This document shows, in pieces, positions 57,401-64,000 of a DNA stretch of 64,000 nt. The position numbers and the translations under genes are program-made. Under the pieces are notes generated by a model. The model searched no databases. It had not been told where the DNA came from and worked only from the letters and a program-made list of their open reading frames with translations. The DNA is from an uncultured bacterium (GTDB taxonomy: Bacteria; Cyanobacteriota; Vampirovibrionia; Gastranaerophilales; Gastranaerophilaceae). The stretch's first letter is position 1; each line of letters starts with the position of its first letter. The stretch spans positions 1 to 64,000 of the forward strand of contig CASDWH010000032.1 of NCBI GenBank assembly GCA_949284715.1, given 5' to 3'.

Positions 57401-58999
57401 TTATATTAATTTAACTGCGTCTTCTATATCGTGGTTAAGAGTGTATACTTCAAGCTTGCTGTTTACGGCCGGAAGCAGGCTGCTTCTAACATCTTCGTAC
57501 TTAACCAGTCCTTGTTTCAGCATTTGCAGTTGAATTTCCGGTGATTGGGTTTTCTTAAACAAACCTAGGCGTTGGTTAGTGTTTAAACGTTCATAGAATT
57601 TTTTAACAACCTCTTTCGGTGCATTTTTAATTACTTCTTCGACATCTTGAAGGGTTTTGCATCCCCGAAAAGTTTGTACTACTGAAATATACGATTGTTG
57701 TGTTTCCCTAGGGGCAGTATATTGTGTGTTTGCTTTAGTATATTCCTCCCGGGGAACATCTTTTTGAAGAGTATTATTTATTACCGTTTCTTGTTTGTCA
57801 GTTTCTTCTATTGTTTCTGTAATAGCCGGCTCGTCAGCAGGTGCAGTTTCTGATACTACAGTAGTATTTTTATCCGTAGTTTCAATAACAGGTGTATCCT
57901 TTTGTACTTCTGTTTTCGTTTCAGGGGTTTTCTCTTCAACCCCGAGAGCGCGTTTATATTCTTCCTGTATTTTTGTTATGTTTTCAGGGGTAAAGGAGGT
58001 TCTTACATTTTCATATTCAGATTTTTGAAGTTTTGCTATTGCTTCTTGACGAACCTTTTCCGGTGCAACATTTGCAACCTGATGAGTTACTTCCCCGACA
58101 ACTTTTTCATATTCGTGCATATTGTTAGCTGTACGATCGTAAGCATCCGCCTGTTGTGATTCATCCAAATTTTGAATTTGTCTTGCAGTTTCAACACCTA
58201 ACGATGTTTTTGTTTCATCTGTATAATTCTGGTTTGCGACAATCCCTCTCGTTGTAGCATCAACTATTTCTGCCTGACGTTCAACTGCGCAATTTGGCAT
58301 TTGTTTAATGACTTCGCGGGTTGGTTCATCTGTATCAGAATGTTGAGCGATATTTTCTGCAATTGGTGCTTGATTTTCATCCTGCATATTAGGTAATTGT
58401 CTTGCTAAACCGGTTCTGACATCATCATCATAGTTTCCTATTAATTCTATAGCTGTTTCTAATTGTTTAATTGCATCTTTGATTTCCGCTGTATATTCTC
58501 CTGCTCTGGCCTTAATTTCTTCAATTTTTGATTTTGCACTCGCAATAGCGGCTGCACGTTTGTTATCATCACTTAAGTCCCAGGTTCTGATTTCATCGTG
58601 AATAGCTTTAATATCAAGCCATTCGTTTGCTTTAATTACGACGTTTTTAACACCTTGTTCTACAGCGTTTACAACCTCATTAAATCCTTTTTTAATCTTG
58701 CCGAAGAACCCGGTTTTTTCTTCTTTTTCCGGTTCTTTAAGCGGTTTCGTTTCATTAACATTTTCTGCTTTAACAACTTTATCAGACATATCCGTATCAA
58801 TAGTATCGCAATTGGGGGTAAAGAAATGACAGAAAACAATTTTATCGGACATATCCGTATCAATAGCATCTTCTGATACCATTGGAATAACAGTTTTAGC
58901 CGGATCGCTTCCTTGCAATGTACCAGGTGTAACAGGTGCGAATTCCGGGTTAATACTTTGATTTTTATTAAGTTGTTCTAAATAATTCTCCGTAGGCAT
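57401..58999 (-). CDS. acidic helical-repeat hypothetical protein beside the CRISPR array
   Basis: 532 residues from ATG 58999, with AGAGGA about nine bases upstream; the frame stays open for 49 more codons without one. Residues about 20-60 carry a duplicated IDTDMSDK segment, then GFFGKIKKGFNEVVNAVEQG (possible amphipathic helix), a long Glu/Asp/Gln-rich helical region with irregular 30-35 residue repeats (about 120-330), a Thr/Glu/Val-rich linker (about 350-430) and a folded helical C-terminus. Not recognised. Only 150 bases separate it from the array, but no known CRISPR function matches it. Confidence 0.6.
   Translation of the reverse strand: MPTENYLEQLNKNQSINPEFAPVTPGTLQGSDPAKTVIPMVSEDAIDTDMSDKIVFCHFFTPNCDTIDTDMSDKVVKAENVNETKPLKEPEKEEKTGFFGKIKKGFNEVVNAVEQGVKNVVIKANEWLDIKAIHDEIRTWDLSDDNKRAAAIASAKSKIEEIKARAGEYTAEIKDAIKQLETAIELIGNYDDDVRTGLARQLPNMQDENQAPIAENIAQHSDTDEPTREVIKQMPNCAVERQAEIVDATTRGIVANQNYTDETKTSLGVETARQIQNLDESQQADAYDRTANNMHEYEKVVGEVTHQVANVAPEKVRQEAIAKLQKSEYENVRTSFTPENITKIQEEYKRALGVEEKTPETKTEVQKDTPVIETTDKNTTVVSETAPADEPAITETIEETDKQETVINNTLQKDVPREEYTKANTQYTAPRETQQSYISVVQTFRGCKTLQDVEEVIKNAPKEVVKKFYERLNTNQRLGLFKKTQSPEIQLQMLKQGLVKYEDVRSSLLPAVNSKLEVYTLNHDIEDAVKLI
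58781..58870 (-). repeat. imperfect 27-bp direct repeat within the helical-repeat gene
   Basis: 58781-58807 and 58844-58870 match at 25 of 27 positions and are 63 bases apart (21 codons, in frame), encoding the repeated IDTDMSDK segment. Confidence 0.85.
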
Positions 59000-59149: not shown

Positions 59150-60005
59150 ATCTACAACAGTAAAAATTTAATATAGGTATTAAACGGTTGTCATCTTTAT
59201 GATGTACAACCTATCTACAACAGTAGAAATTTAATATAGGTATTAAACGTCATTGACACTTGCACCGTTTCATCATATCTACAACAGTAGAAATTTAATA
59301 TAGGTATTAAACATATATGGACTTTGAACTATTACCAGCAATCTACAACAGTAGAAATTTAATATAGGTATTAAACGAATATTAGAAATAGAAAGGGTGT
59401 ACAATATCTACAACAGTAGAAATTTAATATAGGTATTAAACGTCTTGAGAACTTTCGTCTTTACCTGAATCTACAACAGTAGAAATTTAATATAGGTATT
59501 AAACAAAAAAAGATGGCAATAAATCCGTAAATCTACAACAGTAGAAATTTAATATAGGTATTAAACAAAAAAAGATGGCAATAAATCCGTAAATCTACAA
59601 CAGTAGAAATTTAATATAGGTATTAAACCCTGAAACTGGCAGGGGTATAAGTCCGTATCTACAACAGTAGAAATTTAATATAGGTATTAAACACTTATGC
59701 TTGTAAACCAACAGTGTAATCTACAACAGTAGAAATTTAATATAGGTATTAAACTCTGTTATATTAGACAATGCGATTTCATCTACAACAGTAGAAATTT
59801 AATATAGGTATTAAACAAAGTATTTCACTCATTTAAAATCTCCCTATCTACAACAGTAGAAATTTAATATAGGTATTAAACCGGTTAGCAACCCTTGTAA
59901 TGTCGTATCTACAACAGTAGAAATTTAATATAGGTATTAAACAGCGTGGAGCAGAAGCAATTATGCCTTATCTACAACAGTAGAAATTTAATATAGGTAT
60001 TAAAC
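59150..60005 (-). CRISPR. type V-A CRISPR array, 14 repeats, 13 spacers
   Basis: Fourteen 36-base repeats start at 59150, 59213, 59277, 59341, 59406, 59469, 59531, 59593, 59657, 59719, 59781, 59846, 59907 and 59970; spacers are 25-29 bases. On the minus strand each repeat begins GTTTAATACC and ends TCTACTGTTGTAGAT, whose TCTAC/GTAGA stem is the conserved Cas12a handle. Transcription is therefore minus-strand, away from cas2. The repeat at 59150 carries one substitution in the handle stem, as expected at the old trailer end. Spacers 59505-59530 and 59567-59592 are identical, a duplicated unit. Confidence 0.99.
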
Positions 60006-60139
60006 CCTTAGCAAATGGTTTTTACCTTTTTTACCGTATTTTATTGTCAAAGTACAACAAATTTTATTCATTTTCATGTCGTTTAATACCTATTTTCTCT
60101 AAATTTCTTATATTAAGACCCGGGTTTGTATTTTCCGGT
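60006..60139 (-). promoter_or_regulatory. CRISPR leader
   Basis: The AT-rich interval between cas2 and the first repeat. On the minus strand it contains TTGACA (60050-60045) followed by TAAAAA-type sequences, a plausible array promoter, though no good -10 lies at the standard 17-base distance. It also contains the inverted degenerate repeat at 60081-60119. Confidence 0.75.
60081..60119 (+). ncRNA. candidate crRNA-resembling RNA: degenerate CRISPR repeat on the opposite strand
   Basis: On the + strand 60081-60093 is identical to the first 13 bases of the repeat unit as transcribed. Then come 7 bases including a 4-base insertion (CTCT), and AAATTTCT (60101-60108) matches the repeat again. The handle then diverges, yet TCTTA (60106-60110) pairs perfectly with TAAGA (60114-60118) across a three-base loop, in the place of TCTAC-TGTT-GTAGA. 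A weak promoter (TTGTCA at 60044-60049 and a TATTCA or TTCATT box) would start a transcript about here. The sequence from 60120 would be its guide. Inference: a CreR-like regulatory guide. Confidence 0.5.
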
Positions 60140-60415
60140 TTAATTCACTATTATTATATCACTTTCTTCGTGTTTTAAAAAGCCATATTTTGATATTTTA
60201 CAATTTTCACTTGTTTCTATTATCAAAACACTATCTTCCTCTTTAAATAATTTTTCAAAATGATTATCTATTTCACTTTTTATTATATCCAGCATGCGTT
60301 TGCTGTTTTGTATTTTATATACAGAAAACTGCATTCTATTTCCATATTTTTGTAAAAATTTGGAAAATTTTGTTCTCAATTTATCATTTGCTATATCATA
60401 ACTAATTAATATCAC
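60140..60415 (-). CDS. cas2: CRISPR-associated endoribonuclease/integrase subunit Cas2
   Basis: 91 residues. The family opening ILISYDIANDKLRTKFSKFL with the conserved Asp, then RMQFSVYKIQ, identify Cas2, which bridges the two Cas1 dimers during spacer integration. The start is a GTG at 60415, chosen from the family N-terminus, and it overlaps the cas1 end by 14 bases. Last gene of the cas operon, next to the leader. Confidence 0.96.
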   Translation of the reverse strand: MILISYDIANDKLRTKFSKFLQKYGNRMQFSVYKIQNSKRMLDIIKSEIDNHFEKLFKEEDSVLIIETSENCKISKYGFLKHEESDIIIVN

Positions 60416-61376
60416 CTTTTAATACCGCCTTCGGGAACTTTGTAATATCTTCACCTTTCATAAACCAGCGATAATATTGCTGTATAAAATCAAATATATC
60501 GCTCTTATAACTCATTATTTCTGACAGAATTTCGCCTATAAAATGACTGCTATCCTTCCAATCCAATTGATACTGTTCTTTATATTTTGTAAACTTATAA
60601 TCTTTCATTTGCTGTAAGTTTATCATTTTTCTTATTTTATAATCTACAATTGGTCTAAAAGGCTCAATTATATCACATACAAGTGATTTACGCTTATAAA
60701 ATTCTCTATGCAAGTTGCCTTTATAAAGGTCAAATCCATATATGTTTAATACCGCTTCTATATAATTGAATAACACAGTATACCCTATGTCTAATAACAG
60801 ATTGATTTCATCACGCTTAACTCTCGGTTGACGCCCCTGCCAGTTAAACGGCTCAAACATTCTGTTAAAATATATTTTGGCACTCGTTCCTTCCAGCCCC
60901 ATTATACCGTAATTATCATACTCGCTTTTTTCAAGTTTCTCTATTGTTTCATTTAATTTCGCTATCCCTTCTTTTAGTTCTTTTTTACGCAGCTTTTTTA
61001 AAAAATCTCGCTGATTTATTATTTTATTTAAAATTATCCGTTTAGCTATATCATTTGATAAATTTGTACAATATTGTTTTTCGTGCAATAAGAAGTTGCC
61101 TTCCAGAGTAAAACTTATTGCTGTATACAATTTAAAACTCTGAGTAAACAAAATAATTGAAAATCCAAACTTCTTACTTCGCGATATGATACCACTGCTC
61201 AGTGTTATATCACCTACAATAAACAGAGCAAACAGATTATAGCAGCTCAGTTGAAATTTAATATTACCATCTTTGTCTTTTATAACAACGTTATCATTTT
61301 TAAATGTGATTTTTTCACCCTGGTGCGTAAAAATAAATATTACTTTTTTCTCTAAAAAATCCGGCTTGGTTAACAT
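60402..61376 (-). CDS. cas1: CRISPR-associated endonuclease Cas1
   Basis: 324 residues. Cas1 is the integrase that cuts and joins new spacers. The metal-binding Glu is in LEGTSAKIYFNRMF, the His in YKGNLHREFYKRKSLVCD and the Asp just after it, with the IIEPFRPIVDYKIRK end. It overlaps cas4 by 7 bases and cas2 by 14. Length and motifs look intact. Confidence 0.97.
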   Translation of the reverse strand: MLTKPDFLEKKVIFIFTHQGEKITFKNDNVVIKDKDGNIKFQLSCYNLFALFIVGDITLSSGIISRSKKFGFSIILFTQSFKLYTAISFTLEGNFLLHEKQYCTNLSNDIAKRIILNKIINQRDFLKKLRKKELKEGIAKLNETIEKLEKSEYDNYGIMGLEGTSAKIYFNRMFEPFNWQGRQPRVKRDEINLLLDIGYTVLFNYIEAVLNIYGFDLYKGNLHREFYKRKSLVCDIIEPFRPIVDYKIRKMINLQQMKDYKFTKYKEQYQLDWKDSSHFIGEILSEIMSYKSDIFDFIQQYYRWFMKGEDITKFPKAVLKGDIN

Positions 61377-61930
61377 AATAAACTCCTGTCACAACTTGGT
61401 TCGTAGATACAATTTTTACATTTCTCAATATTTACTGCTTTGTATTCTTTCATATCAAATTCCCGAATTTCTTTTATCAAACCCCTAAAAGCTTTATCCA
61501 TCTCAGGATTATCTTCCGGCAATTTTATATCATAATTCCGGTTATCTTTTATACTGTGAAATCTCAGTTTTTTAACCTTATATCCCATTTCCATAAGGGC
61601 ATAATATTGCGCATATAGTTGAAAAATATATCCGTCATATATTCTTACAATCTTATTTTTCCTTTCTGTTAATACACCCGTTTCTGTATCAAAAGTATCA
61701 ATTTTCCCCGCAATATTAAATTCTGAACTAAAAACATTCATACCCTGCAATATGCTTTTTCTGGCAGAATAACTTCTGTTATCAATTGCTTTATGGGCAT
61801 TTGTTCCTTCAGTCTGGCTTGTCGATTGATACAAAGATTTTTCCATTGTCCCGTACAACTTATGAAAATAAATTGATACGGGACAAAAGATAAAATCATT
61901 TAAGTATGATATCAATATGGTTTCTTCCAT
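61370..61930 (-). CDS. cas4: CRISPR-associated Cas4 (RecB-like nuclease, Fe-S)
   Basis: 186 residues. Cas4 trims prespacers and helps choose the PAM side. SYLNDFIFCPVSIYFHKLYG contains the first cluster Cys, and the C-terminal CKNCIYEPSC supplies the other three. The nuclease core residues appear as NIAGKIDTFD and RKNKIVRIYDGYIFQLYAQ. The ATG overlaps the cas12a stop by one base. Confidence 0.94.
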   Translation of the reverse strand: MEETILISYLNDFIFCPVSIYFHKLYGTMEKSLYQSTSQTEGTNAHKAIDNRSYSARKSILQGMNVFSSEFNIAGKIDTFDTETGVLTERKNKIVRIYDGYIFQLYAQYYALMEMGYKVKKLRFHSIKDNRNYDIKLPEDNPEMDKAFRGLIKEIREFDMKEYKAVNIEKCKNCIYEPSCDRSLLC

Positions 61931-64000
61931 TATTTAACATCCCGGGTCTGTACATATGCAAGCCAATCAACATTTTTTATAGCATAATCTATTTTCTTCC
62001 CTTCTTCTGTCTGTCTGATTCTATCAAGTAAAATCAAACCTTTTCTCGCGATATTATATGCGCCGTTTGCGTCAGCATTTTCCGGAAGAGTGCCATTTTG
62101 CAGTCTGGAATCATAGAAAAATCCTTTTTTATTTTTTACAGGAGAAAGAATATAATCCTCTTCACTGCTTGTAACACTATTTCTTAATTGGATAAGGAGT
62201 TTAAATAAGATTTTAAATCCGTTAAAACCATCTTTTTCTTCTACTGCATTAAAGAATTTAGAATCTGCTTTTGTATTAATTTCTTCCTTTATATTGTTAT
62301 AATTTATTCCATATCTATCAAACAAACCCTTAAATTCATCTGTCAGATTTACCATAATATTACACCATTCATTATTTAACTTAGGGTTCCTAAATGTTCT
62401 TATTCTCTCGCCATAGCTGCATACAGTCCATTTCTCACGTTTACCGGATGGCTTACGGCTAAAGTTTCTGTAATCAAAATCAAATTCAAAATACCTTTCC
62501 TGATTATTAAATCTTATTGAATCGAATTTTTGTACAAAATCTTTATCCACACAAGTTAAATCAAATAAATTTACAAACCCTGTAACAGGATCTATTTTAC
62601 TCGTACACCATGCCGGAATATAGAATATTAAACCTTTCTGTTTTGTACTGCTTATTTCTTTACTTGTAAGCTGATATGCGTTCAATACACCGCCTTGCTC
62701 AAACTTGTTCTGTAAAGACTTGTCAACAAGATAGCTTAATTTATCAATTAATTTAGTTTCAAACTTGTCATATACTGATTTTTCGACTTTTTTCCTTAAA
62801 TTTTTAAATCCGCTGTTTAAATCCTCCAATACAATAACAGCATTATATTTGAGCATTAATCCTGTAATTTCATACACCACCTGACTCATATACCCTTCTT
62901 TTAACTCTTTTATATTCTGAATTGTACCCCAGGATTTTCTCGCCAGATCTCGTTCCTTTTCCTTTCTATCTAGCAATTCATGATAATTTGTCTTTCCGAT
63001 TGTATTTAAAGAACGCTGTTCAATAATTTCTCCTTTGCTGTTAATTACGCATATATACAGCAAGTGTCTTTCACCTCTGTCTATACCAATTATATTAATA
63101 TCTCCGGTATGTTTTAGCTCATTATTTGCAAAATCATTGAACTTATTTATACCTATGGCTTTAAAATTCAACGATATTGGAACATGAAACTGGAATTTAT
63201 CCAGAGTATAACGTCTATCCTTGATTAAATCATAATCAAATACACTCTGCTTTTTGGGATTATTCGGATTCTTATTATCTATCGGTACATTTTGGGGGTG
63301 AGTTATTTTAGATTCTATACTCTTTTTGCGGTAAAAAACTTCTGCTCCGCCGTTTAACTGGTAAACTACATTTTTTAAATTATCTTCATCAAAAATAGCT
63401 TTCCAGTACATCGTGTGCAAATTCGGAGTGCCTTGGGAATACTTTGAAAAATCTTTGTTATAAATCTGGAATAAATACAATTTCCCTTCTTTAACAAGCT
63501 TATTTATATATTCTTCTGATATGTCAGTAAATGATATTTTATACCCCTGCTGCTCAACCTGTCTATAAAACTGGCTTATATCCTCATATTTTTCTGTATC
63601 AGAAAAATTAAAATTAAACTTTGACCAATCTTCATGCTTATTTATTGATTGCTTGTAAAAATCTATAAGTTCATGACAAAATTTGATGTCAAAATTTTCT
63701 CCTTTTTTATGTAAACCTTTTCTATAATTAGATAATAAATCTTCCGAAGGGTTAAACTCATTTATCCTTGCTTTGGAGAAAAACACTTTGGGCAGCATTT
63801 TATTTGCCCCGGGAAGTAATTTATACTCTATTTTTTTATAATATGACTGACTTTCTTCCTTTTTATAATTAACAAATATTTTTCTATTATCTTTATTAAT
63901 TATCCCAAGATAATATTCTCCGTCTTTAATAAACAGTGTTCCTAAATTTGCTTCTTCTTTATTCAAGTCCCAGCCGTCTAAAAATGTTGGACAATCAAAA
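61930..64000 (-). CDS. cas12a: Cas12a (Cpf1) effector nuclease, C-terminal part
   Basis: The frame is open to the right edge, so about 690 C-terminal residues of an expected 1,200-1,300 are present. At the edge it reads FDCPTFLDGWDLNKE, matching internal Cas12a sequence, so the TTG at 63966 is not the real start. RuvC: Asp in IIGIDRGERHLLYICV, Glu in AVIVLEDLNSGFKNLR, and Asp in PENADANGAYNIARKGL. The bridge-helix region is GTIQNIKELKEGYMSQVV and the Nuc domain keeps the Arg of QLRNSVTSSEEDYILSP. It processes its own crRNA and cuts DNA. No frameshift; all catalytic residues are intact. Confidence 0.98.
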   Translation of the reverse strand, partial: FDCPTFLDGWDLNKEEANLGTLFIKDGEYYLGIINKDNRKIFVNYKKEESQSYYKKIEYKLLPGANKMLPKVFFSKARINEFNPSEDLLSNYRKGLHKKGENFDIKFCHELIDFYKQSINKHEDWSKFNFNFSDTEKYEDISQFYRQVEQQGYKISFTDISEEYINKLVKEGKLYLFQIYNKDFSKYSQGTPNLHTMYWKAIFDEDNLKNVVYQLNGGAEVFYRKKSIESKITHPQNVPIDNKNPNNPKKQSVFDYDLIKDRRYTLDKFQFHVPISLNFKAIGINKFNDFANNELKHTGDINIIGIDRGERHLLYICVINSKGEIIEQRSLNTIGKTNYHELLDRKEKERDLARKSWGTIQNIKELKEGYMSQVVYEITGLMLKYNAVIVLEDLNSGFKNLRKKVEKSVYDKFETKLIDKLSYLVDKSLQNKFEQGGVLNAYQLTSKEISSTKQKGLIFYIPAWCTSKIDPVTGFVNLFDLTCVDKDFVQKFDSIRFNNQERYFEFDFDYRNFSRKPSGKREKWTVCSYGERIRTFRNPKLNNEWCNIMVNLTDEFKGLFDRYGINYNNIKEEINTKADSKFFNAVEEKDGFNGFKILFKLLIQLRNSVTSSEEDYILSPVKNKKGFFYDSRLQNGTLPENADANGAYNIARKGLILLDRIRQTEEGKKIDYAIKNVDWLAYVQTRDVK

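What the first reader, a model, noticed from the sequence alone, without database searches (positions are those of the whole stretch)
60081..60119. Inverted, structure-preserving degenerate CRISPR repeat in the Cas12a leader: candidate self-regulatory guide RNA
On the strand opposite to the array, 60081-60093 copies the first 13 bases of the repeat and 60101-60108 copies another 8. The handle itself has drifted, but the stem is retained with both arms changed: TCTTA/TAAGA replaces TCTAC/GTAGA. Paired changes suggest selection on RNA structure. crRNA-resembling RNAs (CreR) that lead CRISPR effectors, including some V-A systems, to regulate their own genes have been reported (from memory). Here a transcript would carry a guide beginning at 60120. 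On the array strand the same site is an anti-repeat that could pair with pre-crRNA, a second possible mechanism.
Basis: partly seen in the sequence, partly recalled or inferred. Interest (0 to 1): 0.8.

Follow-up and report, generated by a model that had tools for sequence, protein, structure and literature searches.

The report
Leader anti-repeat in a Cas12a array
Next to this bacterium's Cas12a CRISPR array lies a short backwards copy of the first half of the CRISPR repeat that has changed in step with the repeat across many distant bacteria, most likely so that the start of the array's RNA can pair with its own repeats; it is not a self-targeting guide RNA.

Summary
The letters are as reported. 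The 13-base inverted copy of the repeat's 5' half (60081-60093) is real and far beyond chance. The 8-base match and the stem TCTTA/TAAGA are near chance, and the stem is absent from all five leaders of the same order. The guide-RNA (CreR) reading fails: the copied half is not the half kept in mature crRNA, no Cas12a handle is conserved, and the candidate guide does not match the cas12a promoter. What is conserved is an anti-repeat on the array strand. I found it, 71-87 bp upstream of the array, across one Cas1 lineage of type V-A systems (Gastranaerophilales, many Clostridia, Acetobacterium; partial in Synergistes). It covaries base by base with unrelated repeats: 93% of cells paired, 15 of 16 pairs with two-sided changes, 0/500 shuffles. 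Mismatches are mostly G.U-compatible on the array strand (21 against 2), and promoter-like extended -10 boxes lie upstream of it in most loci. I favour RNA pairing between the leader of the pre-crRNA and repeat 5' halves, as described for Cas9 (II-A) and Cas13 (VI-B) leaders. A Cas1-Cas2 docking site on DNA is the main rival. A second motif, CAAACCTnnGTCTTAAT, follows cas2 in most non-Bacteroidales V-A leaders examined.

The parts
60081..60093 (-). Anti-repeat (inverted leader repeat, ILR): array strand ATAGGTATTAAAC, perfect complement of repeat bases 1-13
60101..60108 (-). AGAAATTT on the array strand; complementary to repeat AAATTTCT and extends the predicted pairing in this genome only (not conserved, about 10% chance)
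60106..60118 (+).
60110..60129 (-). Conserved leader motif directly downstream of cas2 (consensus GCAAACCTnnGTCTTAATAT; here ACAAACCCGGGTCTTAATAT); in most non-Bacteroidales V-A leaders examined
60153..60158 (-). Extended -10 promoter-like element TGATATAAT (TATAAT at 60158-60153, TG at 60161-60160) in the last codons of cas2; predicted start about 60146, upstream of the anti-repeat
   Evidence: sequence match only
60006..60139 (-). Leader between cas2 and the first repeat; ends in TAAGG (60010-60006)
59970..60005 (-). First (leader-proximal) repeat GTTTAATACCTATATTAAATTTCTACTGTTGTAGAT; bases 1-13 (60005-59993) are the partner of the anti-repeat
59150..60005 (-). Type V-A CRISPR array, 14 repeats; the last repeat (59150-59185) carries one change in the handle stem
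60140..60415 (-). cas2
   Evidence: PF09827, 2e-16
60402..61376 (-). cas1
   Evidence: PF01867, 5e-51
61370..61930 (-). cas4
   Evidence: PF01930, 1e-8
61930..64000 (-). cas12a, 3' part; the gene continues to position 65604 of the contig
   Evidence: Cas12a chains in PDB

Best explanation
The site is a conserved anti-repeat in the leader of a type V-A (Cas12a) array, on the array strand. Shown here: in one lineage of V-A systems the leader carries, 71-87 bp upstream of the first repeat, the reverse complement of repeat bases 1-13 (up to 16), and the two sequences have changed together through many different repeats. Inferred: the element works as RNA. It is transcribed near the 5' end of the pre-crRNA and pairs with the 5' half of a repeat, most likely the first one made, leaving the adjacent Cas12a handle hairpin able to fold. 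The helix ends just upstream of where Cas12a cuts, so it would fix the fold of the leader and of the newest repeat and thereby tune crRNA production from the newest spacer. This parallels leader-repeat hairpins of Cas9 and Cas13 systems, but without destroying the handle. The functional outcome is the least certain step.
For: Inverted copy 12-13/13 in loci with unrelated repeats, e.g. GGTTAATAAACCC, ATCCAAAGATCCC, ATCTAATAACCCT. Covariation on 17 loci: 93.4% of cells paired (slid controls at most 48%), 15 of 16 pairs with two-sided changes, 0/500 shuffles on every measure. Duplex test: 19 lineage loci Fisher 6e-24 against 2e-3 for 39 other V-A loci. Mismatches fit G.U pairing on the array strand: 14 against 1 opposite transition in the first panel, then 7 against 1 in loci found afterwards; sense beats antisense, Wilcoxon p=0.001. 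Extended -10 elements lie upstream of the anti-repeat. With one repeat in the transcript the pairing is predicted in 17/17 loci, P 0.83-1.0. Predicted target transcript folds better than all shuffles, z=-4.7. Known parallels: PMC13187072.
Against: No RNA data. Promoters are consensus matches only, and several loci (e.g. L043, L059, L119, L148) lack a clear one. With three repeats in the transcript, equilibrium folding prefers repeat 2 or 3 to repeat 1, so the partner repeat is not determined. The spacing to the array clusters at 71-76 bp in most loci, tighter than an RNA loop needs. L118 has no anti-repeat and L148 only a weak one. The repeat half involved is trimmed from mature crRNA, and V-A systems deal with extraneous crRNA at the last repeat, so the need is not obvious. 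Position 1 supplies many of the wobble counts (13 against 2 without it), and related loci are not fully independent.
Confidence: 0.58

Rival explanations
1. DNA docking site: the inverted copy is bound by Cas1-Cas2, or by the same protein that reads the repeat's 5' end, when the leader is bent back. It directs spacer integration to the first repeat, like the upstream or leader-anchoring motifs of types I-E, I-F and II-A. Repeat and leader copy change together when integrase specificity changes.
For: Nearly fixed distance of 71-76 bp in most loci, without indels across six Gastranaerophilales. Presence follows the Cas1 tree. Repeat bases 1-6 are essential for V-A integration in Francisella (PMC13034035). 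A second conserved motif lies just upstream.
Against: Mismatches are G.U-compatible on one strand, which DNA recognition does not predict. The match is strong at bases 7-13, which were reported as rather negligible for integration in Francisella, where only three leader bases mattered in vitro (a system outside this lineage). Spacings of 78, 80, 81, 85 and 87 bp do not keep one helical phase.
Confidence: 0.25
2. Self-regulatory guide RNA (CreR-like) read from the + strand: Cas12a binds the degenerate handle and represses cas12a through the guide starting near 60120.
For: A 5-bp stem next to repeat-like letters in this genome. CreR is reported for V-A (review PMC12737573).
Against: The stem is not conserved. 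Only the non-handle half is copied. No PAM-adjacent guide match in the cas12a promoter here and none convincing in ten relatives. The only other near-perfect handle in the genome is antisense inside a coding gene.
Confidence: 0.02
3. Trans-acting anti-repeat RNA: leader RNA pairs with repeat-derived 3' tails or repeats anywhere in the pre-crRNA pool, affecting trimming or stability of all crRNAs rather than the first one.
For: Complementarity is equal for every repeat; equilibrium folds place the pairing on repeats 2 or 3 as readily.
Against: Only one anti-repeat per many repeats, at a conserved place in cis to the first repeat.
Confidence: 0.12
4. Degenerate remnant of an inverted array unit, or chance similarity.
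For: Degenerate repeats are common at array ends; A+T-rich leaders give many short matches.
Against: Conserved position and covariation with different repeats; permutation p at the floor of the test.
Confidence: 0.01

Closest known systems
Leader-repeat RNA hairpin of type II-A (Liao 2022, as cited) and type VI-B and related Cas13 systems (Migur 2026, PMC13187072)
   Same: Leader sequence complementary to the CRISPR repeat, predicted to pair within the same transcript, covariant with the repeat.
   Different: Here the effector is Cas12a; the paired half lies upstream of the handle and leaves the handle free; the distance to the array is 71-87 nt; V-A is described as making its extraneous crRNA from the last repeat, so blocking repeat 1 cannot be the purpose.
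Upstream / leader-anchoring motifs that dock Cas1-Cas2 (types I-E, I-F, II-A)
   Same: A conserved leader element at nearly fixed spacing from the first repeat.
   Different: Here the element is a reverse complement of the repeat itself and tracks it through many sequences, with G.U-type mismatches on one strand.
CreR / CreA crRNA-resembling RNAs
   Same: A repeat-like sequence outside the array near cas genes.
   Different: No conserved effector handle, no PAM-adjacent match to the cas promoter; complementary rather than identical to the repeat on the transcribed strand.
tracrRNA anti-repeats (types II, V-B and others)
   Same: Anti-repeat complementary to the repeat.
   Different: Part of the leader in cis; Cas12a needs no tracrRNA; no tracr body found (Rfam: no match).

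Membership tests
CRISPR-Cas type V-A locus | cas12a, cas4, cas1, cas2 next to an array with the Cas12a handle AATTTCTACTnttGTAGAT | tested here: met
CreR-type crRNA-like regulator | Conserved effector handle (repeat 3' part) on the RNA | tested here: not met
   only repeat bases 1-13 are copied; the handle-like stem is absent from relatives
CreR-type crRNA-like regulator | Guide partly matches the cas promoter next to a PAM | tested here: not met
   no match in this genome and none convincing in ten relatives
CreR-type crRNA-like regulator | Transcript bound by the effector represses cas genes | not testable with these tools
   needs small-RNA data and reporter assays
Leader-repeat RNA hairpin | Leader complementary to the repeat beyond chance | tested here: met
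Leader-repeat RNA hairpin | Compensatory changes between leader and repeat | tested here: met
   15 of 16 pairs with two-sided changes, 0/500 shuffles
Leader-repeat RNA hairpin | Predicted fold pairs the leader with the first repeat | tested here: inconclusive
   yes with one repeat in the transcript; repeats 2 or 3 preferred when three are present
Leader-repeat RNA hairpin | The leader element is transcribed with the array and affects crRNA production | not testable with these tools
   promoter-like elements only
Cas1-Cas2 upstream / anchoring motif | Fixed phase relative to the first repeat | tested here: inconclusive
   mostly 71-76 bp, but also 78, 80, 81, 85 and 87
Cas1-Cas2 upstream / anchoring motif | Required for spacer integration | not testable with these tools
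   needs integration assays

The most novel reading that the evidence does not exclude
A lineage of Cas12a systems carries an anti-repeat at the start of the pre-crRNA that pairs with repeat 5' halves: leader-repeat RNA control in a repeat-guide system where none was expected. It would act without disturbing the handle, either on the newest spacer or in trans on all crRNA precursors.
Probability: 0.55. Interest if true: 0.72.

Novelty: new variant of a known kind. Interest (0 to 1): 0.6.

Why it matters
Leader RNAs that pair with repeats are known for Cas9 and for Cas13 systems in which the first repeat makes a useless crRNA. Cas12a systems should not need this, because their surplus repeat is the last one. 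A covarying anti-repeat in Cas12a leaders suggests that leader-repeat pairing has another use, or that DNA integration uses a mirrored copy of the repeat. Either answer is testable with one set of compensatory mutants and matters for Cas12a array design, where pre-crRNA folding limits crRNA yield (PMC6610086). I found no earlier report in the open papers searched, but a 2025 survey of leader motifs (CRISPR J, PMC12171695) could not be read here and may list parts of this.

Tried and rejected
CreR guide against the cas12a promoter: no match. Stem conservation: absent. A second handle-like sequence in the genome (contig C9, 6493-6511) proved to be antisense inside a coding gene. Direct-orientation copies of the repeat in leaders: no enrichment (Fisher p=0.93). 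Viral contigs and plasmids: no V-A relatives of Cas1. Rfam: no match. A 19-base exact match between the array and cas1 looked like a second anti-repeat but is not conserved in relatives. Motif searches in Clostridia gave many chance hits besides six loci with arrays or array starts.

Full report
The window lies in a 2.0 Mb genome whose nearest named relatives are Gastranaerophilales. Cas12a, cas4, cas1 and cas2 run on the minus strand, followed by 134 bp of leader and a 14-repeat array, 59150-60005. The repeat on the array strand is GTTTAATACCTATATTAAATTTCTACTGTTGTAGAT.

Observation. The 13-base piece is significant (13/13, p=0.0005, the floor of 2000 permutations). The 8-base piece (10% of shuffles) and the 5-bp stem (14%) are not.

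Relatives of the same order. Five further genomes with Cas1 74-83% identical (one a partial, 83%) carry the same leader. On the array strand, TAGGTATTAAA(C/T) or CAGGTATTAAAC is conserved at a constant distance, ending 76 bp from the array. In L025/L034 the repeat reads CCTGT instead of CCTAT and the leader reads ACAGG instead of ATAGG, a matched change.

Wider panel. A scan of 84,980 genomes with a Cas12a alignment gave 80 V-A loci. Comparing each locus's own repeat with its own leader gives a clear split. Strong inverted copies with unrelated sequences occur in Gastranaerophilales, Clostridia and Acetobacterium (L047, L051, L059, L075, L086, L103, L106 and others), and none in the Bacteroidota and Pseudomonadota loci with arrays. 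Direct copies are not enriched (Fisher p=0.93). Combined p for inverted copies is 3e-9, limited by the permutation floor. On a tree of 52 Cas1 proteins all positives fall in one supported branch of 16. The three others of that branch are L043 (partial copy), L095 and L101. The latter two had no array on their contigs, but loci with identical Cas1 were found later: L141 (=L095) has the copy, L148 (=L101) only a weak one.

Covariation. Aligning anti-repeat and repeat of 17 loci in register gives 93.4% standard pairs, 66 two-sided changes and 15 of 16 pairs with such changes; every measure exceeds all 500 shuffles, and slid registers drop to 48% or less. An energy-based test gives Fisher 6e-24 for 19 lineage loci; the 39 other V-A loci reach 2e-3, driven by a few weak cases. 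Lineage membership of L118, L119, L121 and L122 was set by taxonomy of the search and, for L119 and L122, by Cas1 similarity.

RNA or DNA. If a protein read both sites on DNA, mismatches should be symmetric. They are not. In the first 14 loci, 14 mismatches would form G.U pairs in array-strand RNA and one is the opposite transition, with 4 transversions. Loci found afterwards added 7 against 1 (L119, L121, L122, L141, L148; my count). Leaving out position 1 the count is 13 against 2. Sense duplexes score better than antisense ones (paired Wilcoxon p=0.001). Most of the Clostridia-type loci have TATAAT or a near match just after the motif CAAACCTnnGTCTTAATATGn, placing the predicted start next to the anti-repeat; the Gastranaerophilales type, with L047 and L062, has TGATATAAT in the last codons of cas2. 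These are consensus matches, not mapped promoters. In the predicted transcript up to repeat 1 the anti-repeat pairs with repeat bases 1-13 in all 17 loci (P 0.83-1.0), while the handle hairpin folds beside it in the two structures printed. With further repeats the equilibrium partner shifts to repeat 2 or 3, so which repeat is bound is open; order of synthesis favours repeat 1.

Against a guide RNA. The copied half is the half outside the handle. No PAM-adjacent match to the promoter of cas12a exists here, and tests in ten relatives gave one low p-value only, an A/T run without a TTTV PAM (L032). No conserved handle is present. The reported V-A CreR systems (review PMC12737573) therefore do not fit.

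Comparison with the literature. Leader-repeat hairpins block useless crRNAs from the first repeat in VI-B and related systems and, in II-A, also favour the newest spacer (PMC13187072). That paper counts V-A among systems whose useless crRNA comes from the last repeat, which here carries a change in its handle stem. Francisella V-A integration in vitro needs only three leader bases and the first six repeat bases (PMC13034035), which argues against, but does not exclude, a distal docking site in this other lineage. Pre-crRNA folding is known to limit Cas12a crRNA yield (PMC6610086).

Conclusion. The anti-repeat and its co-evolution with the repeat are established. RNA pairing is the better supported mechanism (0.58), DNA docking the main rival (0.25). 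What the pairing does for the cell is inferred.

Noticed in passing
window 60110-60129 (minus); L032-L035, L047, L051, L057, L066, L070, L075, L078, L086, L098, L099, L106 and others: A motif GCAAACCTnnGTCTTAAT directly downstream of cas2 occurs in most non-Bacteroidales V-A leaders, with or without the anti-repeat, and a weaker form about 160-185 bp upstream of the array in some Bacteroidales. In four of six genomes tested it occurs exactly once; in the other two, whose copies deviate, the strict pattern did not match. Its role is unknown.
   Followed up: partly
window 59468-59591: Two adjacent identical repeat-spacer units (spacer AAAAAAAGATGGCAATAAATCCGTA on the + strand).
   Followed up: no
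window 59150-59185: The last repeat has one change in the handle stem (TCTAC to TTTAC on the array strand), as reported for terminal repeats of other Cas12a arrays.
   Followed up: no
window 59303-59321 and 60735-60753: A 19-base exact inverted match between a spacer-repeat junction and cas1 (shuffles reach 14 at most). Relatives' cas1 do not keep it, so it looks coincidental.
   Followed up: yes
L118 leader: A V-A leader from the Clostridia order search without an inverted copy but with an 8-base direct copy (TCTAATCA) of the repeat.
   Followed up: no
L031: A 5.4 kb contig filed under Christensenella encodes a Cas12a segment 99% identical to this one: either a mis-binned contig or recent transfer.
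   Followed up: no
window 58772-58870: A 36-base direct repeat (92% identical, 63 bp apart) inside the large ORF left of the array, probably a tandem duplication in the coding region.
   Followed up: no
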